A stretch of DNA of 39,174 nucleotides, taken from the NCBI GenBank assembly GCA_016779165.1, contig JADHOE010000010.1:1-39174 (forward strand), written 5' to 3'. The position numbers and the translations under genes were made by a program. The notes below the pieces were generated by a model. The model was given only the letters and a program-made list of their open reading frames with translations, was not told the origin of the DNA and made no database searches. Each line of letters opens with the position of its first letter. Position 1 is the first letter of the stretch. Origin of the DNA: Candidatus Margulisiibacteriota bacterium. GTDB lineage: Bacteria; Margulisbacteria; Marinamargulisbacteria; UBA817. Below are positions 184-24,696 of this stretch, in pieces.

Positions 184-3100
184 ATGGGAACGATAAGCGA
201 ATTGAATATTGATCAACCACCAGTTCACGCGCTAGACCGGCCCTTGGTGCATGCTGATCAGGCATTTGAAATTTTGGATGCCCCTACACCAAATATGGCA
301 CCGCCAGAATCGACCATCCAACCTTCAGCTGTGGCACATGCATGGGATGCATTGATCGATCATCTTAGCAGTGGCCAGTCCATTGACCAACACCACCCAT
401 TGTTGGTGGCATTGTTGCAAGCGCTAATGGAAACGGGGGTATTGCCAACCAATGCCCCACTAACTGAATCAGGCATCGCCCAGTTCCACGATTGGATGAT
501 GGGCATGATGCCGAATCGGCCACAGGACATGATGCTCATTGAAGGCTGGTTATTGGCGCAGCTAAGCGACGCCAATCCTCAAAGCGGTGTGCAACAAATT
601 AGCGTGTGCCATGGCATTAACGAGTTTCAACAATTCAGCGTCACCACTCATGTGAAGCGTGGGGATGCCTGGCTGACACTCGGCCCATTTTCAGCCACCC
701 CCAGCGTATATGACCATGCCTTGCATGCCAGCAGTACCACCATATTTACCCATGTGGTTGAACACCAGGGCCCCACATTGGATTACAGCCAGGCCCATAC
801 GGCCTTGGCACTAAGCGATGCCGATACGGTCGCATTGAATAATTGGTTTGAGGCACGTTTTCCACAGGGCATTGAATCGGATTCAGCCGTTGGCATGGCC
901 GATGCCATTTACACGGCACTATTGGACGATGGGTTTGAATACCTGCCTGACAATGGGGATTCCTGGGCCTCGGTTGCCGACACCCTGGGCAGTGGATCGG
1001 GGGATTGTGAAGATTTTTCCCATTTGCTGCACGCCGCTTTTTCTTACGGATTTGCCGCATGGCCCCCAAGCGATGCCCCACAACTAAGTGTGGTCGCTGG
1101 GTTGGTTGGCCAAGGGGCGTATGTGTTGGGCCACAGTGTGTTGCACCTGCAGGTGAATGGTGACACCCACGTGTACGATATGGCCCGTACGGTGGTAGCC
1201 GATTCCACCAGTCGCGGCACCCTGTTGGCCAATTATCGCCAACAGGTCGCCTTTAACGAGGTATTGCATTATAATGACCAAGCCACCACCATTACGGCCA
1301 GTCAGGTGGACTTGGCATCGTTTTCAACCGCCAGTAGCCAAACATCGTCACCTTCTCGGCCCTTTATAACGTATGTGGATAGCATGCTTCAAAGCAGTGG
1401 TATTACCGATTCAAGCTTATCGTATTCTGATCTGATTCGTTCGGTGATTGAAGCAGAGACGGGCGCATTTGAAGAAAACAAGGGGTTGCTGGCGCGTCCA
1501 GAAGATGAATTGGTGTTTGATACTGATTTGGTGGATTTTCAGGTGGTTAACTTTTTTGGCCCTGAGGAGATTGATAACCTAATAGGGAATTACGAACTCA
1601 GTATGGATGAGGTTGTTCAGTTGAATGAAATTGTGCATGAAGCAATGGCAACGAATCAACCAATAACACTTGATTCCTTGGATTACTTGCTTGAAACAAG
1701 CCCGTATACAAATATCAGAGAAGTTATTTATATGTACTTGGAATTTGAAAAAGTGATTGGATATGATTGGTTTCCTAATACAAAGTCTTTTAGTAAATCC
1801 TACACAGACATTCATCAAAAACTTATGGAGTTGGGCATCATCAGTGCTCACGGGGAAATTGATCCAGAAAAGTTGGAAGATTCAGCAACTTTAACGGCCT
1901 TTAAGGCGTTCATGACCATAGATTTTGGTGGAGAACAAATGGTATCAAGCCAAGCCGATCGGGTATTGGCCATGATTCGAAACAAGCACTATGTGTTTAG
2001 CAGCGGCGGTGGTGTGCCCCAAGGGGATAATGGCTTGGCCCGCGCCCTTGGTGAATTTGAAGCATTGAGTGAAACCTTATTTAAAGGGTTTTTGGGGTCT
2101 CCAGTGGGAACTAAACTTGATGGCGGACACACCCTTGGCCAATCGCGATTTGCCAAAGGTGATTCCGATAGCTTATTCATTCGCACCGACCACAACGCCA
2201 TTCAAGAATTTATGTCGCGATTTTTAACCGTTCAGAATATTATTTCGGCACATTTAACGGCGATTTTTAGCTTTTGTGATATGGTGGAAAGCCTTTCCGC
2301 AAAGCTGGGCAATGAGCACAGCATGGCATCGGAATCGGCCAACCACCGGCAAAAAATCATGCAAGCGTTTAATAGTTATTCCGGTGCAATGAACGAGTCT
2401 TTGCACAACGTTATGGACATGTTTGAAAAATCGGTTCAAAAAGTGAACGAGGCCCGTTACCAAACAGCTGTTGCTAAGATTGAGGACGAATACAAAGGTG
2501 TGCTTAATCAATTGAAAGACCAGATGTTAGCAGATCAATCCAGCATCCATAAAAACCAGATAATGATGGCATTGTCGCAAGATTACTACCGCATGTTGTC
2601 GGACAACCGAAAGAGCATGCAGTCGGCCATGGTGGACGTCCCTAATTTTGGGCCAAACCTGCTGCCCAGCACCTTCAGTGGTTTTTTGATTGAGCACTCA
2701 GATGAAATGGGCGAGCTTACGTCCATTCAAATATGGAGCTATTTGGTGGCCAGTGGGGTGATTAACGAACAAGGCATGTTAACCGATGGGCATAAAACGA
2801 AATCAGATATTGAAGCCAAAGTAGTGATAAATCGGGACGACAGTATATCGGTTGCAGATAGTGACAACGAAGGCATGAAACAATTTAAGGCATTGCTGCA
2901 ACAAGAATTGGTTAAGTTTAAGGGCTGGATGAGGAGCGCCACCAGTGATCAAAAAACCCAATTGCGAGCCACAATTCATGCCCGTTTGGGCAGCCATGCC
3001 TCAACCCAACAAGACATGGCCAATGGCAAGGTATTGCAGATTGTTCATCCGAGCATTAGCTCCTTCGATACGTCATCATTTATTCCGTCCATTATGGACA

Positions 3101-6100
3101 TGATGGCCCGAGATTCCGATGAACTGTATTACGACCCAAAAACCACTGGGGTGATTCCCTTCCACGGGATTGACGACGACATTGATATTGATATTGCTGC
3201 CCAACACAATCGGTTCAATGAAATGTTGTTAAGTGAAGACAGTTGGATAGATTATCTTAAGAAATTTGAAAAAGAGCCAGTTGATCTGCTGTTTCCAATT
3301 GATTTTAAAACCTTTGGTGACGAAGGTGAATATAACTTAACGCCAGTTCAGAAGGAGCAGTTGAGTCAGATTTTAGAGACACACTATCATGATAGGTTGC
3401 TAGGGTTTGATTATTTTTCCTTAGGTCCGCTGGGTTTATCGCCAAAAGCAAATTATGAGCTAATGCGAAAACTATATTTTGAACGTTATATAAACGGTAT
3501 GAATCAAGTGATATATCGACCTGAAATTATTCAACCTTCGCACCAGCCATTCACCAGTGAAGATCTTTTTAACAGTTTGAAAGATTCGGGAATGTTAGTG
3601 GAAGATGATGCTGGTAAGTTTAACGTTGACTTAACCAACATTAACAATTTCAGTAATAAATATTCCGATGAATACAGTAGCGCCATTGTTGATGCAATTA
3701 TTCAAGAATTAAGGGCAACTAAAAATCCAAACGCGTTGCATTTATCGCGCAATGCGGCAGCTGTTACTGAACCTGGATCTGGCTTTCAAATGGTGAATGT
3801 TGAAATGATGGCCATGGCCAAAAAAAATCTTGCCATGATGAATATGGTGCGACGCATTTTTATGACCCTGGTATCCGCTCAAGCCCAATTTATAGATAGG
3901 CTGGCCGCGCGGATGTCTGAACACGCGACACAATCGTCCCACTATTTAGATACGCCCATGCAGTTAATGGAATCCCACATGCGCTTGGCAGACCGCCAAT
4001 TATCCACCATTCAAACCCAAACACGCCAAATGGTTGACAGAATCAACGACCTTCACAAGCTTCGCTTGAATTTGGTGAAACAAACCGACCCGACGAAGCG
4101 GCGGTTATCCTTGGCATCCGAATACTTGCAGATGGTTGGGGCGATTTTAATGGTGGTTCCCAATGCATATTTTCAGGGCATAGGGGTTTTAATAACAATG
4201 GCGTCTTTGGCGCTGGGTACGGTTGAAACGTACCGCGATCACCAACTAGAAAAAAAGTTACATCAGACCATGGTGGAATATGATGACTGGTTTGATGACG
4301 TTCGACAACAATCGCTTGAATTTTTTTCAGCCAATGGTGTAACACCCAATCCATTTGGATCCTCAGCAGGACATTCATCGGAATTGGTAATTGATGATTT
4401 GCCACGCTCAGTGGTGGATTACAGCAATGCCCACAGCTACATTAACCCCGATGCTCCCCAGGTGCAACAGCTGTTAAACGAGCGCGTGTTCCCAAATGGT
4501 TTGCCCGATTCGCCCGATGCCATTATTGAAGGGGTGCATGCGTTCATGCTTGAAAACACCCAATATGTATCGGATGGCACCCACGATGATTGGGCGGATG
4601 TGAACGATGTGGCTAGCAGCTTGCGAGGAGATTGTGAAGATTTGATCAATTTGGAACACAGTTTATTGTTGGCAGCATTTTCCAAGAGCGGTCAACCGTG
4701 CCCTACCCCAGTGAACCATGCGGCCTACGTTACGGTGGATGGTGACCCAGTGGGGCATGTGTTTTCAACCATTGAATACAATGGGCAAACCATGGTGCTA
4801 GATCCATCGTTGGAGCATGGGGGCATGGTGGCATACGACGACTACAAACGTCGGTACGCTGTCAACGAGGTTTTTACATATACGGCTGGCCAAACTCATG
4901 TTATTGAGCCAGCAGCCTTGGGTCTTGAAACGGCATCGGGTATGGATTCGGTTTTTGATGATGAGTTTTTAAATGATATTTGCACGACTTTTTCGAATGT
5001 TAAGATAACGCCTGGGGCCTCGGATGACGATATTATAAGGATCTTGGGCGGCAGCATGATTGACAAGATATTGGATAAAATTCCTGGTTTGAATATTCCT
5101 CTAATTGGAGATGGCTTTGGTTTGTTCATGAAACAATTTCTGCCGGGTAATGCATTTGCTGGTATTGTTGGTTATGCGGATGATTTTAAGCGCTCAGACG
5201 TATATCAAAAAGTAATGAATGGTCTTACTTTACCAATCACAAGTATTTTAGAGTCGTTATTTGATTATGACTCATATTTTGATGAGTTGACAGACGAATC
5301 CAAAAAACAAATTTTAGAAAATGTTGCTAATGGGAATGTAAATGACCTAAGTCCAATACGTGATCAATTAATCCGCTCTGGAATGGACTTATTTAATTCA
5401 AACGCTGGGCGTCGGCGTGAGTTTAATGCCCAGGCAGGCAGAAGTGCCAATGCCTTGGATTTTCCCATTTACTTTGACAGTGTGACATACACGGATGGCG
5501 ACGGAAATGAACAAACCTTGGATTTGCCCTTGGCCAAGCGGCAGAAACTTGCTGAAATATTAAGCAATGCGTATAACACCAATCAATACAAATATATTGA
5601 ATTGATAGCTATCAGCGAATCTTTGGGACTCACTGATGCCGAAACCATTGGCCTTATAAATCAATTGCAGGCGTTGGGTTATATGGTGAATTTTCAGGTT
5701 GTTCTTCCTTTATCATACTCAGTGTCGGGTTCATTTTTAGATCGTTATATTAAAGAGGATTATAGGTATAAATTTAGTGATCGCTTGTCCAAGTTTCTTC
5801 AAGACAATCGAGGGCTTAACTTTCGTGAATTTACACTATCGGGTGAGTTTGAAGACCTCTTTGGTGACGATAGCCATTGGTTTAATGCCGGCTTCGATAA
5901 ATTTGACGTAACGGAAGGAATTATGGATGAACTATTGGCTCTCAATATTTTGAAATATGATCAAGATCAACGCATCTATACTATTAACACCTTTACCATG
6001 CCTGTAACGACCAATTTAAATACAGAGCCGAGCATTCAAGCGCTGCTGCAACAACAGGTGGCATCGCTTGGGGATATGCATGGGACTGACAGTCATGATT

Positions 6101-9100
6101 TACGGTCGCGGTTTTTAATTGACATGGACTCAAAAGGCCAACGGGTAACCACCGACCACATTGCCATTGAAGGATTCAAGGATGATATTCGAATCACCCA
6201 AGAAAAATTACGGCTGGTATTTATGGTTACAAAAATGATAACGGAGTCATTGCTCACCTTAGCGGCCATTATCGGAGATGAGCAAAAAGCCAAAGTGGCC
6301 AATGGATTGCAAGAAATTTTTGAATCGAACTTTGATTTGGTGAATGCAGACGTTCAAATGTTTGAACAAATTATGTCGCATATGGAAACGGCCATTAACC
6401 ATAATGTGCAAGTAGAAAAAACTCGCTACGAAAAAAAATATGATTTCCAGTTTAAACTGGCAATATTGCCAGCATCTATGGTGTTTGCAAAAGTTGCTCA
6501 ACCCATTCAAGTGGTGGCCGATATTTTCGAAACCACCATGCTTCATTACGATACCTTTGGGCACAATCAATGGTCGGAACGGTATTTGAACACCAATCAA
6601 TTTGGTGAAGAGGGGTTTATTCAACAAGCAGCCTACCATCGTTTTGGCAAGTATTATGATATCGGTGGGGGGCCATATTCTTCAGCCTATAATTTAAAGT
6701 ATGTCAATATAAGGCTTCTTCGATCTAAAAATTTTGATTTACTGTGGGACGCTGCTACAGGAGATGCCTCCATTCAAAAAACAACAGGGTTGGCTTTTAA
6801 GGACATTATAGGGGGTGAGTTGAATGGCGATTCGGCGCATTACTTAGATCTCGATTACAATCGATTTGCCAGTATTCGGCAGCAAATGGTTAGCAATGGC
6901 ATGCGAGCTCAAATGTTGTTGGTCTATGTCATGGCCAAAGCAGGGTTTTTGGCCTCCCTTACTAAATCCATTCGTGGGGATGGAAAGGTTGCTTCGTCGC
7001 AAGCGTTGGCCACCAGTATCGATATCCTAGAGCGGGAAGTCATGCATGACATGGACTCATTAAATGCCATACAGAGCATGCATCAGGAAGCAGTGCGCGT
7101 GCATAACATGCACATTGATGCGCTGCAACGGGTTGAAAAATCGGTAATTGAGGGTGTTCTTTTTGGTGCTTTTTTTAGTGTTGGATTCGTTGCCCCAAGC
7201 CTGTTTCAGAGCTTGGGTGGGCTTGCCAGCATGTTAACAATTAAGGCCATTGCCAACATGTTGCATGGGTTTCTTACTGGGTTTGATGCAATGGACAAGG
7301 CACAGACTCGTTTAGAACGCAAAACGTTTGCTAAACAGGATGCCCCTCAGGAACCAGAATCCCCCGATGGCGATGCCAATCGACGCAGTTATCAGCCACA
7401 AACCAAGGCGTTGACGAACCCCTACGAGCTGCCTGAATGGATGACGAAGGCTGAAGCAAATTATTTAGAGGATACCTACGATAAAAACAAGGTAATATAT
7501 TATCAATCCACCCCCATTGGCGATGCGTTTGGGTTTGGCCATGCAGGGGTCAATTGGTATGAGTTGGCCATTCAACAAGTCGAGTTAAAAAAATTGTTTG
7601 CGGCATGGGATGCAATTTTAAAGGTCAATCAAAGCCGATCAGAAGCCATTCAGGCCATTGCAGAAGACCTGGGCGCTGTGGTGAGTAGTTTGTCGTTTAC
7701 ACGGGGGCTAAAATCCAGTATGGCGTTCCAAAAGTCGCTAATGACCACCACCCTTGACCAACGCTACAAAATGATTCAGGCGGTTGTTGACTTGTTTAAC
7801 CGTGTTCAAAAAGAGCGTCGGGAAACCATTATCCAACTTGTTAAGGGCGTTTTGATGGGTCTCATTGGAAAAAGCATTGCAAAGCAACGGAGTATAACTG
7901 ACAGGAATAAAATGAGTTTTTCTCAGTCGCTAACAATAAAACAAAGACTGAATCCAATGAGTGCTAAGTTTTTGGGTCGTGGGGATAACCGATTTCTCGA
8001 TGCATTTAACCGTTTTGGCGAAGACATTATGCGTTTGGTTGGCGCCCTTATTCGTCGGGAGCAATTGGAAAGCGCTCGAGCCGAACGAAGCAACCAGCTT
8101 GCATCAGCCACACATCGCATGGGGGCTGGGTCGGGTGCTGAGGCAGTGCTTTACATTGCCAGTGCTCAAGCCTCATCTAAAAAAATCGAATCCGACGTTA
8201 TTGGTGAAATTAAATCTTATGAAAACGACTTTAAAAATGTGATCTTGGACATGAAACGTGTTGTGGAAGCGCAAGCAAGGGAGATTGCGAAATTGCAAAC
8301 AAGCGGAGATGCCGAATTCATTAAGCAAAAACATAAGGAACTGAGTAAAAGCATTCTAAAAGACGACATGGTCAATACTCAGCGCATTATGAAGGAAGTT
8401 GCCGCAGGGCTGGCTAAACCAAATATTAAACAGACATGGAACCTGCCCACCATTGGTGGTGCGCTACTTACTGCCGACAACCTGCGCAGATCCATTGTTA
8501 GGGCCTTTCTTCCCCTGCTAAAGCTGGTGGGAATGGAACGGCTAGAAGCCCCAATGCACCCCACCCAAATTCGCTCTATTGGCAGGTTATGGAAAACCGT
8601 TGATAATGCAGAAACAATCATTAAAGAAAATGGTGGAAACCAACAAGCACTTGAAGAATTTCAGGATGAGAAAGATGGCCTCATCACATTGGTAGACGAT
8701 TTTCAGAAGAGTGTGTCACAGGATTCCTTTGGCGAAGATACCCTGATTCAGTCCATCCGGTTGTTGCAAGATATATCCAATAAATTTGATACGCTAAGTC
8801 GAATTGTTGGCCAATTTGACGATTATCAATCCCGGACAATGACACAAAAGCTTAACCAGCTCGTTTTTTCATCAACGTCAAATATAAAGGCCGCATCCGC
8901 CAATATTCAATCCTTTGTTGTATTTGCAACCGCAGCCACTGTGGTGCATTTAAACCCACATGCAAAAGCGCATCAACATCAATCAGGGCAACACCACAAT
9001 TTAACCAGCTTTTATAGTTGGTTGGACAATCAAGAAGCTCGATCACCTGGTCGGGTCTACGCCCCGCTAGCCCAACAATTTGCACAACTGTCCAATCAAG

Positions 9101-12100
9101 ATAATGCCAATCAACAGGCCTTGTTTAACTTTTTTAAGCAAGCACTTAACGATAACAATGAAACGTCAGCACAAAGGCAATTGGCCATAAAGTTATTGGC
9201 CTACCAACAACGAAATGCCAGGGCAACCATTCAATTTTTAAATGAAGAAGTTAAAAATAAAGATCGCCGTGCGAGTCTAAGATCAATTCTAAACCAGGCG
9301 CAACAACAAAATAACCCAAACTTTGCGAAGCATTTGCTGTACGGCCATTCGCCGCGAATGAGTGGTATTGTGCCCAAGGTTTTTAGAAAAAAAGGAGACC
9401 AATACCACCCATTGGTGACGCAATGGATGATGGACGCCGAAGAGAACAACACACTTGTTAATTATTTCAATCAACTTGAAATGGACGATCAACTTCAGCG
9501 CCCAGACCTATCAGACGGATGGTTAAGTGCGGCTGCAAGCCGTCTGCAACCAACGGGGCGTTTAAAAAAATGGGAATATGAAAAGGAATGGGATAACCTA
9601 GTTAGTGAACTTTCCTTGGATGATGCACCTGATACGCAATCAAAGGTTCAACGATTGAAAGGGGTTGTCAACTTTGCCGCTGCATTAACAATCAGTGAAA
9701 CCAATAAACAAAAGCTTTATAAGCGTATTGAAATACTATTTAAATCTTTGACAACAGATGTCAGGGGTATCGGGCCTGATCAAAATGATTCGTTTTTTGA
9801 ACTGTTATCAGCAACCTTGGCATTCCAATCGTTAAACCCAACGTTTGAATCGGCATTTCTAGAGCAATTGGCTGAAAAATACCACGCAAATAATCCCAGC
9901 GATTTTTCAGTGCCTTCAGCTACCAGTAAACAGCCACTGTATCAACAATTGGAACTTCAAATGGCAAGCCATAGGCATTCTTATAATTCTCGTGCTCTTA
10001 TAGTGTCAATGTTCGACGATATTCAAAGTAAAATAGATGATCACCCTTATGGCACTACATATCCAAACCAACAATCCAAATTCGACCGCATGTCTGATGA
10101 AGATTTAATTAATCATGACAAGGTGTTGGACAACGATCTTCGGGTGGTGCAGGCACTGTTAAACAGGGTTAAATTACATGGCGCTAACGCTGACACGTTA
10201 AGGTTTTTGGTCGATCATCAGTTCACTGCCCTTTGGTCCTTTTTAAATCAACAGGTGAGCAAGAACCCTCATGATTTTAATGCCATTGCCGAATCGTTCA
10301 GTCAAATGGTTCAATGTGGGGCAATTACCCCCATTCCAGATTCCCCCCAAAGGCTAATGATGGAATTGCTTTTTGGCGATGGGACTCAATTCAATGATGC
10401 CTGCAACCGGTTAAACGCACAAATTCTGCCACAAATGCAAGCGTTGCCATTGTCAGATGACACCATCATTCATTTGCTTAACCAATCCCGGAATCAGAAA
10501 AACTTATGGGAACAAGCCATCAGGGATGATGATGGGCCACTTCGGAATCTTGTACTCAGTCGCATGGCGTTATCTAACGAATTAATGGGCGACATGAAGA
10601 TGACAGACAGTAAGTTAACCCATGCCTTTATCGAAAAGCAACCCGACATTGCGTTTCAGCGTCTACTTAACGGTCCGCCTATCGATACTTCCATCATCAA
10701 TGGCTTGCTTCCAACCATTGCATCAAGCATGGCGTGGCTGGAAAAACCCCAGCTTGCTGCGAAATTGTATGAAAAACTGAAAACCAATCAAAAAGATATT
10801 CTTTACAATCATTTATGGCGTGAAAAACAAAATTATAGGGCATTGGATGTGCTGTACCATGCCCTTGATGATGCTCAAAAAAAAGAGCTTAAGAGCCGTT
10901 TTGATACGTGGTGCAAATCCCAAAAAGAAACCATAGATCAGCTGACAGATAACACAGAAAAAGGAATGAAATTGGAGAAAATTAAAAAAATTGTCCACAC
11001 CATTTACCCAGTGTTCGAGGGGTTTGGCCACACACTTAATAATGTGTTGCAAGTCAGTCCCTTTGAACCCGAGTTGGTGAATCACGTCATGAGCCACATG
11101 GACCAAGGGCAATATCCGCAATATATTCAAGACCTAACAACCCATTGGGATAAGAGAGACACCCCTAACTATGACATCCAAAAACGCCACATTGTTGAAT
11201 TGGATCAGACGTTTCAAGCACAACCAGATGACCAAATGGCCACTGATTTTATAAAGGATTGGGTTGAATCGCAGGAACCAAACCGCCGCGTGGCGGCCCA
11301 TGTGTGGTTGAATGCCCAATTGAAAGTTGATCAAAAAAAACAAGCGTGGCAGGAATTGGCCCAACGAGACTCAGATATTCGCTGGTTGCTTGGTGCCCAT
11401 GGCATTGCCTTGCCTGCAACCGAGCGCATTCAAGATGTTTCTTCACAAATGGTGACACGATTATTTTCACCCCATCAATCTACGAAGAATACAACACAGG
11501 CTTGCCTGAGTGATTTAGCTGCAATATCAAACGCCACCATTCGGGGGCAGGTGCTCAGTGACATGTTGCATCAATTGAGACCTTCACTTCAAATGGGGTT
11601 TATTAAATATCGCTTGTGCATCAATATTATAGCCGATATTTTTAAGAAATTCCCAGAACTGGCCAATCATTCGGATGAATTGAATGGTGCCATGACGGCA
11701 TTTTTAACCGATATATTGAATCCACCTGCTGGTGTGACTTACCAGATTCATGATCAAAAAGCAGCATTTTTAACCCTGTTGGATACCATGCCAAACGACC
11801 CCTTTTCCAGGTACATGGCAAAAATTGAACAGTTGGTGGGTTATGATGCATTGTATGAATTTAGCATTAAAAACCCGCATGCTACCAGTGCTACGCCATT
11901 TGAACAGGCGGTATCCCGGCGGGTGGCGCTGATGGCAACTCAAGCTCAAAATATTGACAAAACTAAGTTTGATAGCTACAAACGGTACATTGAATATAGT
12001 CAAGGTCGCTTAACACCGGATGATTTTTTCCGCCAACCGACCATAACTGAAGACCGCCAACCGACCATAACCGAAGATTTGGCCCATTTGCATCAATGGC

Positions 12101-13398
12101 ATCCCCATGAATTTGGTCGGTTGTGTTATGATTTATCGAAAACAAAGAATGCCGCCTATCGCAACCACATTTTTGAGCAAATGGCCGAAAAAATTCCTAG
12201 AGGGTTAACGAATGACGTAGACATCAATTTCGCTTTGGCCATTCAATCCATGGTCGTTGAAATTGACCGTTACTACACCATGCCTGGTCAAAGTGTGTTG
12301 CAGGAGTTTTTTACTGTCGTTCAAAACCAACAAAAATATGATTCTATCGACGATTTATTTAAGGAATCTGCGTGGTGTGATTTTATCTGCGTTAGCAGTT
12401 TGCCCAACAAGTCGTCCAATAGGTTTCAAACACTTATTATTGAAAACCTACTGGAAGCCAAGCTTAAACCCACATGGTCGATTGGAAATGTGCTAAATCT
12501 AAAAAGGCACCCGCTCTACGATAGCTTTCCAACACTTAGTGGCGCTGCATTTGATGCCTTTGTTGGCCGGTTGATTCAGGGCAATCGGATCCAGCATCAT
12601 CATGCATTGGCAGGGATTGTTGAAAAAGCCCCAGGCCTTAATGCCCCACGAAAGAAAACAGAGACGATCATTCAAGGCATTGTTCAAAAAATCGTAACGA
12701 AACAGGGCGGTGGCATCGATACCCTTTTAGGGGTTGCTGATGAATTGGGCGCCAAGAAAGATTTTTGGTTTGCTGAAGTTGGGCATTATTTTAAACATAA
12801 GAGTCGGCTCCCAATTAAGGGTAAGGTGCTGCATGGCCAAACATCATTGCCAGACAAGGACAGCACCCATCGAAGGCCTCAGTACACGGAGCTCCTTGAT
12901 CAGCTGGTTCAATTGCAACGACAAACCGATTCATCTAAGCTATTAATGGCCCATTTGGTTGCAGCATTGCCTGGGCATTTGGGTAAGGACACATTGCCGG
13001 ACCGTTGGGTAACTTTATTTAACAGTTGGTTCGATAAAGTGAGTCAAGGCATGCGACAACCTGAAAAGGATAAGTTATTAACGGATTCTATTGATGATGT
13101 TCAAAGACTTATGACAAAACCAAACATCACATCACTGCAAAGTAAGATTAAAGATTCAGGCAATCCATTCACAAAAGTTGTCAACGGATTAACACTTGGT
13201 CAGGCAAGGGCTGGTCAATTTAACATTCGGGCTCAACTTTTTAAGCAACAACATTTAATGGTCGAAGGTATGAATAGTAATAAACTGCTTGATATCATTG
13301 ATGCACTAGAAAAATTCGATGCTTACAACCGAAAAAATGAGTTATCTAAACAATCAGGGTTTAGTGTGGGGCATGTTCCCCTTGCATCTGTTGTATAA
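184..13398 (+). CDS. Giant 4404-residue protein with two transglutaminase-like cysteine peptidase domains
   Basis: Function unknown. I recognise two related domains of the bacterial transglutaminase-like cysteine peptidase type (papain-fold Cys-His-Asp triad). Domain 1 is about residues 210-365, with GDCED at 273-277 (Cys275), His317 in GHSVLH and Asp332 in VYDMA. Domain 2 is about 1405-1600, with GDCED at 1482-1486 (Cys1484), His1525 in GHVF and Asp1540 in VLDPS. Flanking sequence is also conserved between the two (LDYSQAH against VDYSNAH before the Cys; FNEVLHY against VNEVFTY after the Asp), so they arose by duplication. The rest looks mainly helical. There are amphipathic and coiled-coil stretches, strongly hydrophobic segments at about 1316-1347 and 2322-2362, and a helical C-terminal third from about 2950. 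No N-terminal signal peptide, lipobox, autotransporter, dockerin or sorting motif is seen. The reading frame is intact over 13.2 kb with codon use like its neighbours. The start fits the adjacent -10 box. A protease, a cross-linking or deamidating effector, or a surface or contact-dependent protein are all possible; none is shown. Confidence 0.9.
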   Translation: MGTISELNIDQPPVHALDRPLVHADQAFEILDAPTPNMAPPESTIQPSAVAHAWDALIDHLSSGQSIDQHHPLLVALLQALMETGVLPTNAPLTESGIAQFHDWMMGMMPNRPQDMMLIEGWLLAQLSDANPQSGVQQISVCHGINEFQQFSVTTHVKRGDAWLTLGPFSATPSVYDHALHASSTTIFTHVVEHQGPTLDYSQAHTALALSDADTVALNNWFEARFPQGIESDSAVGMADAIYTALLDDGFEYLPDNGDSWASVADTLGSGSGDCEDFSHLLHAAFSYGFAAWPPSDAPQLSVVAGLVGQGAYVLGHSVLHLQVNGDTHVYDMARTVVADSTSRGTLLANYRQQVAFNEVLHYNDQATTITASQVDLASFSTASSQTSSPSRPFITYVDSMLQSSGITDSSLSYSDLIRSVIEAETGAFEENKGLLARPEDELVFDTDLVDFQVVNFFGPEEIDNLIGNYELSMDEVVQLNEIVHEAMATNQPITLDSLDYLLETSPYTNIREVIYMYLEFEKVIGYDWFPNTKSFSKSYTDIHQKLMELGIISAHGEIDPEKLEDSATLTAFKAFMTIDFGGEQMVSSQADRVLAMIRNKHYVFSSGGGVPQGDNGLARALGEFEALSETLFKGFLGSPVGTKLDGGHTLGQSRFAKGDSDSLFIRTDHNAIQEFMSRFLTVQNIISAHLTAIFSFCDMVESLSAKLGNEHSMASESANHRQKIMQAFNSYSGAMNESLHNVMDMFEKSVQKVNEARYQTAVAKIEDEYKGVLNQLKDQMLADQSSIHKNQIMMALSQDYYRMLSDNRKSMQSAMVDVPNFGPNLLPSTFSGFLIEHSDEMGELTSIQIWSYLVASGVINEQGMLTDGHKTKSDIEAKVVINRDDSISVADSDNEGMKQFKALLQQELVKFKGWMRSATSDQKTQLRATIHARLGSHASTQQDMANGKVLQIVHPSISSFDTSSFIPSIMDMMARDSDELYYDPKTTGVIPFHGIDDDIDIDIAAQHNRFNEMLLSEDSWIDYLKKFEKEPVDLLFPIDFKTFGDEGEYNLTPVQKEQLSQILETHYHDRLLGFDYFSLGPLGLSPKANYELMRKLYFERYINGMNQVIYRPEIIQPSHQPFTSEDLFNSLKDSGMLVEDDAGKFNVDLTNINNFSNKYSDEYSSAIVDAIIQELRATKNPNALHLSRNAAAVTEPGSGFQMVNVEMMAMAKKNLAMMNMVRRIFMTLVSAQAQFIDRLAARMSEHATQSSHYLDTPMQLMESHMRLADRQLSTIQTQTRQMVDRINDLHKLRLNLVKQTDPTKRRLSLASEYLQMVGAILMVVPNAYFQGIGVLITMASLALGTVETYRDHQLEKKLHQTMVEYDDWFDDVRQQSLEFFSANGVTPNPFGSSAGHSSELVIDDLPRSVVDYSNAHSYINPDAPQVQQLLNERVFPNGLPDSPDAIIEGVHAFMLENTQYVSDGTHDDWADVNDVASSLRGDCEDLINLEHSLLLAAFSKSGQPCPTPVNHAAYVTVDGDPVGHVFSTIEYNGQTMVLDPSLEHGGMVAYDDYKRRYAVNEVFTYTAGQTHVIEPAALGLETASGMDSVFDDEFLNDICTTFSNVKITPGASDDDIIRILGGSMIDKILDKIPGLNIPLIGDGFGLFMKQFLPGNAFAGIVGYADDFKRSDVYQKVMNGLTLPITSILESLFDYDSYFDELTDESKKQILENVANGNVNDLSPIRDQLIRSGMDLFNSNAGRRREFNAQAGRSANALDFPIYFDSVTYTDGDGNEQTLDLPLAKRQKLAEILSNAYNTNQYKYIELIAISESLGLTDAETIGLINQLQALGYMVNFQVVLPLSYSVSGSFLDRYIKEDYRYKFSDRLSKFLQDNRGLNFREFTLSGEFEDLFGDDSHWFNAGFDKFDVTEGIMDELLALNILKYDQDQRIYTINTFTMPVTTNLNTEPSIQALLQQQVASLGDMHGTDSHDLRSRFLIDMDSKGQRVTTDHIAIEGFKDDIRITQEKLRLVFMVTKMITESLLTLAAIIGDEQKAKVANGLQEIFESNFDLVNADVQMFEQIMSHMETAINHNVQVEKTRYEKKYDFQFKLAILPASMVFAKVAQPIQVVADIFETTMLHYDTFGHNQWSERYLNTNQFGEEGFIQQAAYHRFGKYYDIGGGPYSSAYNLKYVNIRLLRSKNFDLLWDAATGDASIQKTTGLAFKDIIGGELNGDSAHYLDLDYNRFASIRQQMVSNGMRAQMLLVYVMAKAGFLASLTKSIRGDGKVASSQALATSIDILEREVMHDMDSLNAIQSMHQEAVRVHNMHIDALQRVEKSVIEGVLFGAFFSVGFVAPSLFQSLGGLASMLTIKAIANMLHGFLTGFDAMDKAQTRLERKTFAKQDAPQEPESPDGDANRRSYQPQTKALTNPYELPEWMTKAEANYLEDTYDKNKVIYYQSTPIGDAFGFGHAGVNWYELAIQQVELKKLFAAWDAILKVNQSRSEAIQAIAEDLGAVVSSLSFTRGLKSSMAFQKSLMTTTLDQRYKMIQAVVDLFNRVQKERRETIIQLVKGVLMGLIGKSIAKQRSITDRNKMSFSQSLTIKQRLNPMSAKFLGRGDNRFLDAFNRFGEDIMRLVGALIRREQLESARAERSNQLASATHRMGAGSGAEAVLYIASAQASSKKIESDVIGEIKSYENDFKNVILDMKRVVEAQAREIAKLQTSGDAEFIKQKHKELSKSILKDDMVNTQRIMKEVAAGLAKPNIKQTWNLPTIGGALLTADNLRRSIVRAFLPLLKLVGMERLEAPMHPTQIRSIGRLWKTVDNAETIIKENGGNQQALEEFQDEKDGLITLVDDFQKSVSQDSFGEDTLIQSIRLLQDISNKFDTLSRIVGQFDDYQSRTMTQKLNQLVFSSTSNIKAASANIQSFVVFATAATVVHLNPHAKAHQHQSGQHHNLTSFYSWLDNQEARSPGRVYAPLAQQFAQLSNQDNANQQALFNFFKQALNDNNETSAQRQLAIKLLAYQQRNARATIQFLNEEVKNKDRRASLRSILNQAQQQNNPNFAKHLLYGHSPRMSGIVPKVFRKKGDQYHPLVTQWMMDAEENNTLVNYFNQLEMDDQLQRPDLSDGWLSAAASRLQPTGRLKKWEYEKEWDNLVSELSLDDAPDTQSKVQRLKGVVNFAAALTISETNKQKLYKRIEILFKSLTTDVRGIGPDQNDSFFELLSATLAFQSLNPTFESAFLEQLAEKYHANNPSDFSVPSATSKQPLYQQLELQMASHRHSYNSRALIVSMFDDIQSKIDDHPYGTTYPNQQSKFDRMSDEDLINHDKVLDNDLRVVQALLNRVKLHGANADTLRFLVDHQFTALWSFLNQQVSKNPHDFNAIAESFSQMVQCGAITPIPDSPQRLMMELLFGDGTQFNDACNRLNAQILPQMQALPLSDDTIIHLLNQSRNQKNLWEQAIRDDDGPLRNLVLSRMALSNELMGDMKMTDSKLTHAFIEKQPDIAFQRLLNGPPIDTSIINGLLPTIASSMAWLEKPQLAAKLYEKLKTNQKDILYNHLWREKQNYRALDVLYHALDDAQKKELKSRFDTWCKSQKETIDQLTDNTEKGMKLEKIKKIVHTIYPVFEGFGHTLNNVLQVSPFEPELVNHVMSHMDQGQYPQYIQDLTTHWDKRDTPNYDIQKRHIVELDQTFQAQPDDQMATDFIKDWVESQEPNRRVAAHVWLNAQLKVDQKKQAWQELAQRDSDIRWLLGAHGIALPATERIQDVSSQMVTRLFSPHQSTKNTTQACLSDLAAISNATIRGQVLSDMLHQLRPSLQMGFIKYRLCINIIADIFKKFPELANHSDELNGAMTAFLTDILNPPAGVTYQIHDQKAAFLTLLDTMPNDPFSRYMAKIEQLVGYDALYEFSIKNPHATSATPFEQAVSRRVALMATQAQNIDKTKFDSYKRYIEYSQGRLTPDDFFRQPTITEDRQPTITEDLAHLHQWHPHEFGRLCYDLSKTKNAAYRNHIFEQMAEKIPRGLTNDVDINFALAIQSMVVEIDRYYTMPGQSVLQEFFTVVQNQQKYDSIDDLFKESAWCDFICVSSLPNKSSNRFQTLIIENLLEAKLKPTWSIGNVLNLKRHPLYDSFPTLSGAAFDAFVGRLIQGNRIQHHHALAGIVEKAPGLNAPRKKTETIIQGIVQKIVTKQGGGIDTLLGVADELGAKKDFWFAEVGHYFKHKSRLPIKGKVLHGQTSLPDKDSTHRRPQYTELLDQLVQLQRQTDSSKLLMAHLVAALPGHLGKDTLPDRWVTLFNSWFDKVSQGMRQPEKDKLLTDSIDDVQRLMTKPNITSLQSKIKDSGNPFTKVVNGLTLGQARAGQFNIRAQLFKQQHLMVEGMNSNKLLDIIDALEKFDAYNRKNELSKQSGFSVGHVPLASVV
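12031..12078 (+). repeat. 24-bp tandem duplication inside the giant gene
   Basis: Two adjacent 24-base units (12031-12054 and 12055-12078) differ at two bases. They encode RQPTITED twice, at residues 3950-3957 and 3958-3965. Both differences are synonymous third-position changes, so the protein repeat is exact and the frame is kept. Confidence 0.9.
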
Positions 13399-21227: not shown

Positions 21228-22123
21228 GCATTTCTATTATTGGGGTTGATCATTATATGGCAACCCAAGCACGTTCAATTTGCTTGGGATCCTTTGATGG
21301 GGTTCACTTGGGGCATCAAGCACTGTTAAAGCAAGCTGACTTTATGCTAACGTTTGACCCGCACCCAAAACAAGTATTGGCACCAGAAACCACGATTGAA
21401 CGCCTTACCTTTCCCAATGAACAGCATATTTTTTTTCCAAATCAGTTAATTGTTCCCTTTACAAAAGTTGTGGCGCAGATGCCTGCCATTGATTTTTTGA
21501 ATCATGGTATTGGGCCATTGCAACCAAAAAAAATTGTGGTGGGGGCCGACTTTAAATTTGGCCGCTATGGAAAGGGTGGGGCAACTTTATTAAAGGAGTG
21601 GGGGGCAATCAACCGCTGCACCATTGACGTAGTGCAAATTCAATACCATAGTCAGGCACTGCCTTATAAAAGCAGCATCATTCGAACAATGTTGAAGGCC
21701 GACCCCAATCAGGCGCTTGAGCTGTTGGGGCACCCCTACTTAATGATTGGCACTGTCGTTCCAGGCAATAGAAAAGGCCGAGAGATGGGTGTTCCTACTG
21801 CCAATTTGCAAGTGCCAGATAACAAATGTTTGCCAGCATATGGGGTATATGCCAGTTATGTGGTCATTGATGGTTGCAATTACCCTTCAATTACCAATAT
21901 CGGGGTTAAGCCAACGTTTTCAGATCATACTCCCAGCATTGAAACCCATATTCTTGATTCCTTTTCTGAGCACATTTATCATCAACAGATTCAGTTATTT
22001 TTGCTTCATTTTATACGGCCAGAACAAGCATTTTCTTCAGAATCAGCGTTGGTTAGCCAAATGCAGCAAGATATTATTCAGGTGAATCAGTATCATCAAA
22101 TGCACCCTCAGATTGTTTCTTGA
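21224..22123 (+). CDS. ribF: Bifunctional riboflavin kinase/FAD synthetase
   Basis: RibF phosphorylates riboflavin to FMN and adenylates FMN to FAD. 299 residues. The N-terminal nucleotidyltransferase has GSFDGVHLGH (22-31), TFDPHPKQVL and GADFKFGRYGKGG. The C-terminal kinase has GREMGVPTANLQ, YGVYASYV, TNIGVKPTF and a final ETHILDSF segment. About ten residues usually found between the GH motif and TFDPHP are missing, a short deletion that leaves both motifs intact. It overlaps the truB stop (ATGA). The end overlaps the end of the convergent fliJ by 50 bases. It is the last gene of the nusA operon. Confidence 0.94.
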   Translation: MSISIIGVDHYMATQARSICLGSFDGVHLGHQALLKQADFMLTFDPHPKQVLAPETTIERLTFPNEQHIFFPNQLIVPFTKVVAQMPAIDFLNHGIGPLQPKKIVVGADFKFGRYGKGGATLLKEWGAINRCTIDVVQIQYHSQALPYKSSIIRTMLKADPNQALELLGHPYLMIGTVVPGNRKGREMGVPTANLQVPDNKCLPAYGVYASYVVIDGCNYPSITNIGVKPTFSDHTPSIETHILDSFSEHIYHQQIQLFLLHFIRPEQAFSSESALVSQMQQDIIQVNQYHQMHPQIVS

Positions 22124-22631
22124 GTTTCTTTCGTTCCAATTCCGTTGTTTCTTTTTCTTCACGAGCGCGTTTAGAAAACGCAATCGATGCAATTTCATCC
22201 AAGAACTTCATGTCCTCTTTTTTCATTATTTTTTTCCAAAGCTCACGCTTTTTTTCTTTGTCTTCTTCTAATATTTTTTTGTCTTTCATGGCTTGAACCA
22301 AGGCCTCGCGTTGAATGTCTTTTTCTTCTTCAGCCCCTTCTCGAATGGTTACTTGGTCCACAATCTTTTCTTTTAACTGTTCAAGGTGGGCTTTTCTCAT
22401 CATGACTTGCTGAAAATCAATGGTTTTTCCCTCACTAAGTTCGCCCAAAAGGTGCTGGTGCTCCTGGTGTTCCTGGGCCTTCATCACTTCTTCTTTTTTT
22501 AATTCTTCTTTGTATTTTTTTTCCGCGGTATTAAACTTGTCTTGCTCTTGAGACTCCCTAAGTTCTCTAAACCCCAATGCTGATTCAAGGTTGTATTTAA
22601 AGCGTTTGGATTTTTTTGGTGGTTTGGTCAT
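22074..22631 (-). CDS. fliJ: Flagellar export chaperone FliJ-like protein
   Basis: 185 residues, highly charged and predicted to be almost entirely coiled coil, starting with a FliJ-like segment (FKYNLESALGFRELRESQEQDKF). FliJ-type proteins are stalks of the flagellar export ATPase and help recycle chaperones. The gene follows fliI by 3 bases, the classical place for fliJ. Sequence identity in this family is low, so the call relies on length, coiled-coil pattern and position. The tail (GAFDDTDSPE) is antisense to the end of ribF. Confidence 0.82.
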   Translation of the reverse strand: MTKPPKKSKRFKYNLESALGFRELRESQEQDKFNTAEKKYKEELKKEEVMKAQEHQEHQHLLGELSEGKTIDFQQVMMRKAHLEQLKEKIVDQVTIREGAEEEKDIQREALVQAMKDKKILEEDKEKKRELWKKIMKKEDMKFLDEIASIAFSKRAREEKETTELERKKLKKQSEGAFDDTDSPE

Positions 22632-22634
22632 GCA

Positions 22635-23936
22635 TTAATGAAAAATAGACGAGATTAATCGAACCGTTTCGTCAAAGGGGATATTTTCATCCGTTCGTTG
22701 CCTTAAAAACGAATTAACATCATCAATTTTATCAATGGCGTCATCAACTTTGGGGTTGCTGCCTTTCACATAGGCCCCAATGTTAATTAAATCTTCGGCT
22801 TCTTCGTATTTGGCTAAAATCTCACGCAATCGCCCAGCCGACACTTTATGTTCATCGGACGATACCACCGAAAATAATCGGCTGACACTATGCCCAATAT
22901 CAATGCAGGGGTAGTGGTTTTTTGATGCAAGGTCACGGCTTAGTAAAATATGCCCATCCAAAATACCTCTGGCGGCATCTGCAATGGGTTCGTCAAAATC
23001 ACCACCATCCACCAACACGGTATAGATGGCGGTAATGGTGCCTTGGTCAGATGTGCCTGCCCGTTCCATTAAACGTGGCAACATGGCAAATACGGATGGG
23101 GTATACCCCTTGGTTGTTGGCGGCTCACCAGTTGCTAGGCCAATTTCACGTTGGGCCATGGCAAACCGAGTAACAGAGTCCATCATAAACAATACGTCTT
23201 TTCCTTGGTCTCTAAAATATTCTGCCACGGCAGTGCCCACCATTGGGCATTTCGCTCTAATCAAGGGCACGGTATCCGATGTTGCACATATGACCACCGA
23301 TTTTTTTAGGCCGTCTTCACCAAGGGACTCTTCAATAAAATCATTGACTTCCCGGCCACGCTCTCCAACCAAACAAATCACATTCACTTCGCCGGTGCAA
23401 TTCCTGGCGAGCATACCCATTAAGGTGCTTTTACCCACGCCGGATCCGGCAAATATACCAATGCGCTGCCCTTTACCCAAGGTTAACACCCCATCTATTG
23501 ATTTTACACCAACACTTAAAACATCCTTAATTCGTGGTCGCCGAAATGGGTCCGGTGGGTCTTGATCAATCGGGTAATGCGCCTCGTATTCAATGGGCCC
23601 TTTACCATCAATGGGCTCGCCCAAACCATTCAGTACACGTCCAAGTAATTTTGGCCCCACTTTAATGGAGATTGGCATGCCCATGGGGTACACCTTGCTA
23701 CCTGGTCGAATTCCCGTAATTAAGCCCAATGGCATCATCAACACTTGGTCTTCTTTAAACCCAACAACTTCGGATCGAATCATGTCGCCGCCTGTCACTT
23801 CGACCATGCACAGATCGCCAACGCAAACCCCTTGAATTTGTGCTTCAATAACCAACCCAACCACTTTTACAACACGACCAACAATTCGAACCACATCGAG
23901 TTCGTCCAGGGCCTTTTTATAATGGTCGAGATTCAT
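22635..23936 (-). CDS. fliI: Flagellum-specific ATPase FliI
   Basis: The ATPase that energises flagellar type III export at the inner membrane. About 433 residues from the chosen ATG. Walker A is GSGVGKST (about 164-171), followed by ICLVGERGREVNDFIEE, the Walker B region DVLFMMDSVTRFA, GEPPTTKGYTPSVFAMLPRL and DGGDFDEPIADAARGILDGHI, all diagnostic of FliI/SctN. A longer start at TTG 23966 is open. I prefer ATG 23936 because the N-terminus then fits FliI length (MNLDHYKKALDEL). Either start overlaps the fliH end, by 20 or 50 bases. It lies between fliH and fliJ. FliI rather than a virulence SctN is favoured by linkage to fliH and fliJ, though no other flagellar gene lies in the window. Confidence 0.93.
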   Translation of the reverse strand: MNLDHYKKALDELDVVRIVGRVVKVVGLVIEAQIQGVCVGDLCMVEVTGGDMIRSEVVGFKEDQVLMMPLGLITGIRPGSKVYPMGMPISIKVGPKLLGRVLNGLGEPIDGKGPIEYEAHYPIDQDPPDPFRRPRIKDVLSVGVKSIDGVLTLGKGQRIGIFAGSGVGKSTLMGMLARNCTGEVNVICLVGERGREVNDFIEESLGEDGLKKSVVICATSDTVPLIRAKCPMVGTAVAEYFRDQGKDVLFMMDSVTRFAMAQREIGLATGEPPTTKGYTPSVFAMLPRLMERAGTSDQGTITAIYTVLVDGGDFDEPIADAARGILDGHILLSRDLASKNHYPCIDIGHSVSRLFSVVSSDEHKVSAGRLREILAKYEEAEDLINIGAYVKGSNPKVDDAIDKIDDVNSFLRQRTDENIPFDETVRLISSIFH

Positions 23937-24645
23937 GTTGTTTAATTTTTTTAAAGGTTTGGGCAATGATGGTTAATTTTTCTTTAATCGTAAGATCAAT
24001 GAATCCCAAATCTGTTTCAATCACGCACCCACCTTGTTCAATGTTACTATCTTGCTGGATTGTAATTTTTTCAACTCCCACCAGCCGAGATTCCAGCATG
24101 GGTTGAAAATCGTTAAATACATCCGCATCATTTGGGTTAATTTTAAATGTCACGCGGTCAGACCCTGCAATTTTATCCAGTGTATCGTTAACAACGCTGG
24201 TTATAATAGATTCATCCATTTCAATATTTTTTTGAATCACTTTCTCAGCAATCAACATGGCCAGATCAACCACTTGGTGCTGCATGGATTGAATGACACT
24301 TTCTCGGGCATCCCTTAACCCATGAATGGCTCGGGTTAAATCATCAAAATGATCGTTAAACTCATTGCGAATCGCCAGTGCCGCATCTTCAGATGGTGGG
24401 GCGGCATCGAATACATCAGAATCTGGAGCATCTTCAAAATCAAATGTTTCGTTGTTTGTTTCCGAGTATGTTGCCCAGTCATCCTCCATGGTTACGGCCT
24501 GTTTTGATGGCATTGATTGTGTTCGTATGGGTGGGTCTTCGGATGCTCGCAGTCGGGACGACTTTATAAGGTTTCCCTGCCGTTCATCCCTTAACTCAAT
24601 GGCTTCAAAAGAGTCTCCAATTTGATGGTTTTTAATAATTGGCAT
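23917..24645 (-). CDS. fliH: Flagellar export ATPase regulator FliH
   Basis: A 242-residue FliH/SctL family stator that binds FliI and links it to the export gate and C ring. The N-terminal 110 residues are acidic and disordered-looking. A helical segment (VVDLAMLIAEKVIQKNIE) follows. The C-terminal domain ends with the family-typical GGCVIETDLGFIDLTIKEKL. I chose the ATG at 24645 rather than the ATG at 24696, because a perfect TATAAT ends 7 bases before it and the upstream extension would be an unusual hydrophobic tail running into the lgt start. First gene of fliH-fliI-fliJ, divergent from lgt. Confidence 0.85.
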   Translation of the reverse strand: MPIIKNHQIGDSFEAIELRDERQGNLIKSSRLRASEDPPIRTQSMPSKQAVTMEDDWATYSETNNETFDFEDAPDSDVFDAAPPSEDAALAIRNEFNDHFDDLTRAIHGLRDARESVIQSMQHQVVDLAMLIAEKVIQKNIEMDESIITSVVNDTLDKIAGSDRVTFKINPNDADVFNDFQPMLESRLVGVEKITIQQDSNIEQGGCVIETDLGFIDLTIKEKLTIIAQTFKKIKQHESRPL

Positions 24646-24652
24646 CGCTAAC

Positions 24653-24690
24653 ATTATAGCGAATACAGCAATTAATTGATATATTAATAT
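24653..24690. promoter_or_regulatory. Back-to-back promoters for fliH (minus) and lgt (plus)
   Basis: On the minus strand TATAAT (24653-24658) ends 7 bases before the fliH ATG at 24645. On the plus strand TAATAT (24685-24690) ends 6 bases before the lgt ATG at 24697. Candidate -35 boxes at 17-base spacing are weak (AATACA at 24662-24667 for lgt, TATCAA read on the minus strand at 24681-24676 for fliH) and lie inside the same 38 bases. Neither gene has a Shine-Dalgarno sequence. The two promoters would compete for polymerase. Confidence 0.55.
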
Positions 24691-24696
24691 CCACAC

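What the first reader, a model, noticed from the sequence alone, without database searches (positions are those of the whole stretch)
184..13398. A 4404-residue protein carrying two transglutaminase-like Cys-His-Asp domains
One intact 13.2-kb frame encodes two complete triads (Cys275/His317/Asp332 and Cys1484/His1525/Asp1540) of the bacterial transglutaminase-like cysteine peptidase type, about 1200 residues apart, in a helical protein I cannot place in any family. Known relatives such as LapG are small, stand-alone and periplasmic. Two such domains in a giant protein without a signal peptide suggest a large protease, cross-linker, deamidase or contact-dependent effector. The sequence shows the triads and duplication; the activity is inference.
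Basis: partly seen in the sequence, partly recalled or inferred. Interest (0 to 1): 0.85.

Follow-up and report, generated by a model that had tools for sequence, protein, structure and literature searches.

The report
Giant Margulisbacteria protein with protease domains
An uncultured bacterium of the phylum Margulisbacteria makes a 4404-residue protein with two LapG-like (calcium-type, Cys-His-Asp) enzyme domains and five repeated helical hairpins; it belongs to an undescribed family of giant proteins that in related genomes sits beside rod/hook genes of a flagellum-type export machine, most of these bacteria having no detectable flagellin.

Summary
[quoted passage not shown] A 29-domain family profile finds the two LapG crystal structures first (E 3e-8 and 1e-7), the modelled first domain matches transglutaminase-like proteases (Foldseek E 6e-5), and the Asp and Glu flanking the catalytic Cys (calcium ligands in LapG/DvhG) are invariant. 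The protein belongs to a family of giants (about 2000-7400 residues, many cut by contig ends) in Margulisbacteria: N-terminal LapG-like domain(s), usually three to five copies of a ~115-residue helical hairpin, then a fast-changing C-terminus. New here: in nine Marinamargulisbacteria genomes the giant lies within about 10 kb of a conserved operon with a FlgE/F/G-type rod/hook gene; in a sister lineage small versions lie 1.4-2 kb upstream of flhA. The phylum mostly carries flagellar-type export genes but no detected flagellin (8 of 56 genomes have it). The giants are cysteine-poor, and termite-gut members carry PKD domains. Best reading: a surface or secreted giant, probably exported by this flagellin-less machine, with calcium-activated protease-type domains. 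Export and activity are inferred, not shown.

The parts
184..13398 (+). giant ORF, 4404 aa (P0001)
   Evidence: order- and class-level relatives
811..1281 (+). LapG/BTLCP-type domain 1 (about residues 210-366); Cys275 at 1006-1008, His317 at 1132-1134, Asp332 at 1177-1179; DCED calcium-type motif 274-277
4438..4884 (+). LapG/BTLCP-type domain 2 (about residues 1419-1567); Cys1484 at 4633-4635, His1525 at 4756-4758, Asp1540 at 4801-4803; DCED 1483-1486
2176..2514 (+). helical-hairpin module 1 (about residues 665-777)
   Evidence: independent E 1.7e-15
3784..4137 (+). helical-hairpin module 2 (about residues 1201-1318), followed by a hydrophobic stretch (1308-1347)
   Evidence: E 1.4e-17
6148..6483 (+). 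helical-hairpin module 3 (about residues 1989-2100)
   Evidence: E 3.2e-15
6841..7188 (+). helical-hairpin module 4 (about residues 2220-2335), followed by a hydrophobic stretch; modelled as two long helices
   Evidence: (E 3.5e-18)
7549..7860 (+). helical-hairpin module 5 (about residues 2456-2559)
   Evidence: E 3.2e-14
8281..13395 (+). fast-evolving C-terminal region (residues 2700-4404), no family match; 21% identity over ~310 residues to the same-family genome G002
22074..22631 (-). FliJ-like export protein on the same contig (context)
   Evidence: E 2.8e-8, below the curated cut-off
22635..23966 (-). FliI/SctN export ATPase (context)
   Evidence: 638.7 bits, over the 629.8 cut-off
23917..24696 (-). 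FliH-like stator (context)

Best explanation
The ORF encodes a member of a giant-protein family found in Margulisbacteria. Two LapG-type (BTLCP) cysteine-protease domains sit among five coiled helical-hairpin modules and before a rapidly changing C-terminal region. Most likely the protein is exported by the flagellar-type type III machine of these bacteria (a machine that in this class has rod/hook proteins and FlhA but no detected flagellin) and acts at the surface or outside the cell, where calcium would switch the LapG-like domains on to cut partner proteins or the giant itself. Shown here: intact gene, the two LapG-type domains with triad and calcium motif, predicted fold of domain 1, five modules, conservation of the layout, gene linkage in relatives, cysteine depletion. 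Inferred: export route, location, calcium dependence, proteolysis as the chemistry, the target.
For: LapG-type domains: profile-to-PDB hits 4fgo (E 3.3e-8) and 4u65 (E 1.2e-7); Foldseek of the domain-1 model to transglutaminase-like proteases (3isr E 6e-5, TglA 9crn E 9e-4; vasohibin and PeiP weaker), domain pLDDT mostly 76-94 over residues 211-330 with a dip to 68; invariant D-C-E, where DvhG D316A/E318A or C317A is inactive and activity needs calcium (PMC13090378). Modules: five copies, E 3e-14 to 4e-18, also found across the class and in termite-gut members. Type III link: operon with a FlgE/F/G-family gene (TIGR03506 91.4 bits against a cut-off of 70.25) next to giants in G001, G004, G008, G014, G016, G020, and its marker gene of ~585 aa also near giants in G011, G017, G019; in G000 the same operon begins at the very start of contig C28 while the giant begins 184 bases from the start of its own contig, so they may be neighbours; TGase genes upstream of flhA in G028, G034, G037. 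FHIPEP in 49 of 56 relatives against flagellin in 8 of 56. Outside the cell: PKD domains in termite-gut members; 14 Cys against 48 expected from the window's housekeeping proteins.
Against: No export or enzyme assay exists. No recognisable secretion signal. FHIPEP was not detected in G000 (71% complete), G003, G033 (93% complete) or G045, which do encode the domain. The rod-gene linkage was not seen for the two giants of G002, for G023, or for the termite-gut giants whose flanks were read. Some Margulisbacteria families have FHIPEP without flagellin and without a LapG-type hit, so co-occurrence is uninformative. FliG_C-like domains are present in the window's class, so a rotary function is not excluded, and a divergent filament protein could escape the flagellin profile. 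Exporting more than 4400 residues by a flagellar-type channel would be unusual. The AlphaFold model is poor outside the domain (mean pLDDT 56.5).
Confidence: 0.45

Rival explanations
1. A surface adhesin-like giant that is its own substrate: the LapG-type domains process the chain in cis (or neighbouring copies) after export, releasing it or maturing segments, a one-chain counterpart of the LapA-LapG pair.
For: LapG-type domain with calcium motif inside a giant, probably extracellular chain; PKD domains in termite-gut members; two intact-looking copies between modules.
Against: No [T/A/P]AAG site of the LapG substrate type in the protein (one AAG, within VAAG near 2740). No LapD-type receptor found in 36 relatives, though the control search was silent too, and no LapB-type ABC exporter over cut-off.
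Confidence: 0.2
2. A cross-linker: the domains form isopeptide bonds that reinforce the export appendage or the cell surface.
For: Foldseek's second distinct hit is S. pyogenes TglA, a TGase-like protein by name only as far as I checked; probable extracellular setting; position beside rod/hook genes in relatives.
Against: The sequence profile prefers LapG proteases, and the DCED calcium motif is a LapG/DvhG feature.
Confidence: 0.12
3. An effector delivered into a neighbouring cell or host, with the hairpins as membrane-active parts and the LapG-type domain as protease or deamidase.
For: Hydrophobic stretches after modules 2 and 4; type III linkage in relatives; some Margulisbacteria are host-associated (Ruthmannia in Trichoplax, PMC6784892).
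Against: No translocon or injectisome protein recognised; the size is extreme; no toxin or immunity family matched above cut-off. Weak needle-like similarity exists only in small relatives, below cut-off.
Confidence: 0.12
4. A cytoplasmic or periplasmic structural giant with no link to export; gene linkage is incidental.
For: No signal peptide or export signal evident; linkage missing in some genomes.
Against: Repeated linkage across several families, strong cysteine depletion, PKD domains in relatives.
Confidence: 0.11

Closest known systems
LapG / DvhG (BTLCP, Pfam PF06035 Peptidase_C93)
   Same: Cys-His-Asp triad, Asp-Cys-Glu calcium motif, profile hits to both LapG structures
   Different: LapG is small, soluble and periplasmic and DvhG is a separate protein; here two domains are inside a 4404-aa chain; no LapD found in 36 genomes (control silent); only 5 of 29 domains hit PF06035 at E<=0.01
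Other transglutaminase-like cysteine proteases (3isr, TglA, vasohibin, PeiP/PeiW)
   Same: predicted fold of domain 1
   Different: different sequence families; no giant helical partner in those entries
Large RTX adhesins (LapA type)
   Same: giant, cysteine-poor, probably surface protein; PKD repeats in termite-gut members
   Different: no RTX or Ig repeats in the window protein by Pfam; protease-type domain built in; no LapB-type exporter over cut-off
Flagellar and injectisome type III substrates
   Same: gene linkage to rod/hook genes or flhA in relatives; cysteine depletion; small relatives with weak needle-like C-termini
   Different: far larger than usual substrates; no known substrate family matched

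Membership tests
BTLCP / LapG (C93) | Cys-His-Asp triad in order and context | tested here: met
BTLCP / LapG (C93) | Asp and Glu flanking the catalytic Cys (calcium site) | tested here: met
   DCED in both domains, D-C-E invariant in 29; role from PMC13090378
BTLCP / LapG (C93) | transglutaminase-like fold | tested here: met
   domain 1 only; domain 2 by sequence homology
BTLCP / LapG (C93) | curated Pfam score reached | tested here: not met
   window protein: PF01841 18.3 against 23 bits; no PF06035 match at E<=1
Lap system (LapA-LapD-LapG) | small secreted LapG protein | tested here: not met
   domains lie inside a 4404-aa ORF with no evident signal peptide by inspection
Lap system (LapA-LapD-LapG) | LapD receptor and LapB exporter | tested here: inconclusive
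   PF16448 0 of 36 but control silent; TIGR03375 none over cut-off
Lap system (LapA-LapD-LapG) | [T/A/P]AAG cleavage site in cis | tested here: not met
Type III export substrate | encoded with export or axial genes | tested here: met
   relatives; in the window itself only FliH/FliI/FliJ ~9 kb away and an unproven contig neighbour
Type III export substrate | export dependent on the machine | not testable with these tools
   needs a cultured or surrogate host
T3SS needle (PF09392), small relatives only | curated score reached | tested here: not met
   best 19.0 against 29.4 bits
RTX adhesin / CDI / Rhs effector | their diagnostic repeats or domains | tested here: not met
   no such Pfam match

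The most novel reading that the evidence does not exclude
Margulisbacteria run a flagellin-less flagellar-type secretion machine whose cargo or appendage is a giant protein with a built-in calcium-gated LapG-type protease, a kind of type III substrate not described before.
Probability: 0.3. Interest if true: 0.85.

Novelty: new variant of a known kind. Interest (0 to 1): 0.6.

Why it matters
It defines a giant-protein family widespread in an uncultured phylum related to Cyanobacteria, moves LapG-type proteases from small periplasmic regulators into giant multi-module chains, and gives a handle on what a flagellar-type export apparatus does in bacteria with no detectable flagellin. Both domains are small enough to express and test.

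Tried and rejected
Single-protein scan of genome contigs with the first 672 residues: no relative. Whole protein against PDB, NCBIfam and PHROGs: nothing useful. Helical module against Pfam, PDB sequences and PDB folds: only coiled-coil noise, including single weak YopD and Flagellin_N matches that I do not count, and one PDB match at E 1.4e-6 to a coronavirus S2 helical construct that I read as coiled-coil similarity. First combined module/domain alignments were misaligned and not used for modelling. Small proteins upstream of the TGase genes in different lineages looked alike by eye but profile comparison did not support it. Needle-like C-terminus of small relatives: T3SS_needle_F is the best Pfam match but below cut-off, and there is no PDB match, so left as a hint. 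Flagellin-less state as a predictor of the giant: not informative.

Full report
Observation. The frame 184-13398 is intact and complete at its start. Pfam alone gives a sub-threshold Transglut_core match (18.3 against 23 bits), so I built a family profile. Searching relatives with residues 1-672 found matches in 24 of 95 genomes at E<=0.001. Iterating gave 33 domains above my cut; aligning 29 shows Y, W, G-D-C-E and H invariant and the Asp at least 90% conserved. That profile's best PDB hits are the Legionella (4fgo) and Pseudomonas (4u65) LapG-type structures (the organism and LapG names are from my own knowledge and PMC13090378's references, the tool calls them periplasmic protein and putative cystine protease). 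In Pfam 22 of the 29 match Transglut_core, 12 CEP76 peptidase and 5 Peptidase_C93 at E<=0.01. A profile search finds the domain in 36 of 75 relatives.

Taxonomy. The tool hides names for genome handles. A pattern scan returned named contigs whose lengths equal those of several handles (38956, 28981, 60921, 153408, 164375, 39029, 11505), so I infer that the same-genus genome G001 is UBP8_UBA817, the same-family genome G002 is Candidatus Marinamargulisbacteria HJD.5, and other same-phylum genomes are Termititenax and termite-gut Margulisiibacteriota. Hence the window is Margulisbacteria, class Marinamargulisbacteria.

Fold. AlphaFold2 on residues 1-440 with 17 aligned sequences gave mean pLDDT 56.5, but the domain is well modelled (ten-residue block means 84, 94, 92, 91, 68, 85, 89, 91, 79, 80, 76, 93 from residue 211). 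Foldseek found 3isr (E 6e-5) and TglA 9crn (8.9e-4), then vasohibins and pseudomurein endoisopeptidases above 1e-3. Coordinates were not given, so triad distances were not measured; domain 2 was not modelled. DvhG loses activity when the Asp and Glu flanking its Cys, or the Cys, are replaced, and is calcium-dependent (PMC13090378); both window domains read DCED.

Layout. Besides the two domains, a ~115-residue helical module occurs five times (stop-to-stop residues 667-779, 1203-1320, 1991-2102, 2222-2337, 2458-2561; subtract 2 for P0001 numbering), with E-values from 3.5e-18 to 3.2e-14 against an iterated profile that includes them. Relatives read over enough length mostly have three to five copies, including Termititenax; distant ones match more weakly. 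Module 4 models as two long helices with a hydrophobic continuation (mean pLDDT 75.1) and has no PDB fold match below E 0.7. In G002 and G004 both LapG-type domains are at corresponding places. In termite-gut f18 members a second, adjacent copy lacks the Cys and His, and some members have PKD repeats after the domain. The C-terminal 1700 residues share only 21% identity over ~310 residues with the same-family genome G002 and nothing detectable with the others compared. The giant has 14 cysteines where the window's housekeeping proteins predict 48, and nine relatives have 0.09-0.35%.

Context. In the window, FliH, FliI and a FliJ-like gene lie ~9 kb downstream. In relatives, comparing neighbours showed a conserved operon beside the giant: a FlgE/F/G-family gene, a ~585-residue protein, and smaller unknowns, with a small gene directly upstream of the giant in several genomes. 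By positions, the giant (in G004, a relative cut by the contig end) and this operon lie within about 10 kb in G001, G004, G008, G011, G014, G016, G017, G019 and G020; it was not seen beside the two giants of G002 or in the 6 kb upstream in L044 (G023 by matching hit). In several other genomes a contig end prevents a test. In the window's own genome the operon starts 68 bases into contig C28 while the giant starts 184 bases into its contig; comparison with G001 would put roughly 0.9 kb between them, so adjacency is plausible, not shown. In G028, G034 and G037 smaller LapG-type proteins lie ~1.4-2 kb upstream of flhA. Their C-termini form a small family, also in a G043 protein without a LapG-type domain and at the end of a 588-residue G028 protein; the best Pfam match is the T3SS needle, E 0.0016 but 19.0 against a cut-off of 29.4 bits.

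Export machine. FHIPEP (FlhA/SctV) is found in 49 of 56 relatives and rod-protein C-termini in 54 of 56, but flagellin in 8 of 56, and those 8 carry two or three FHIPEP hits; G042 also has two hits that look like one split gene. FliG_C-like domains occur in the window's class, often in larger proteins and with weaker scores than the FliG of the flagellin-bearing genomes. So these bacteria mostly have a flagellar-type apparatus with no detected flagellin. Library searches for this found nothing on point, but the library is partial.

Mechanism. I put 0.45 on a surface or released giant exported by that apparatus with calcium-switched LapG-type proteolysis. Each step beyond domain identity and gene linkage is inference. 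Lap-system membership is not claimed: the small-protein format and the in-cis cleavage site are not met, and LapD/LapB searches were negative or uninformative.

Novelty. The domain is of a known kind; the giant, repeated-module architecture and its linkage to a flagellin-less export locus are, as far as I could check, undescribed.

Noticed in passing
56 relatives: Most Margulisbacteria genomes have FHIPEP and rod genes but no detected flagellin; the 8 with flagellin carry extra FHIPEP copies.
   Followed up: partly
L058:89-7966, L038:2025-8963: Termite-gut giants carry PKD repeats between the LapG-type domain and the helical modules.
   Followed up: partly
L017, L034, L016: A second, adjacent LapG-type copy in f18 members has lost the Cys and His (GASQN or GNSQG; EKQW or EKQY), an apparent dead domain.
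   Followed up: no
L133:9349-10500, L134:1602-2765, L160:7794-9488, L164:7875-8576: Proteins beside flhA share a C-terminal domain with weak T3SS-needle similarity; the G043 one has no LapG-type domain.
   Followed up: partly
L022:16430-18187 and homologues: An unknown ~585-residue protein is found in 29 of 36 relatives, with no Pfam or NCBIfam match.
   Followed up: partly
L161 (G000:C28:1-12000): The rod/hook operon of the window's genome starts at a contig end, as does the giant's contig; possible assembly break between them.
   Followed up: partly
   Followed up: no
L060-L120: Many archaeal MAGs encode small GGDCEDL-type transglutaminase-like proteins, often ~370 residues.
   Followed up: no
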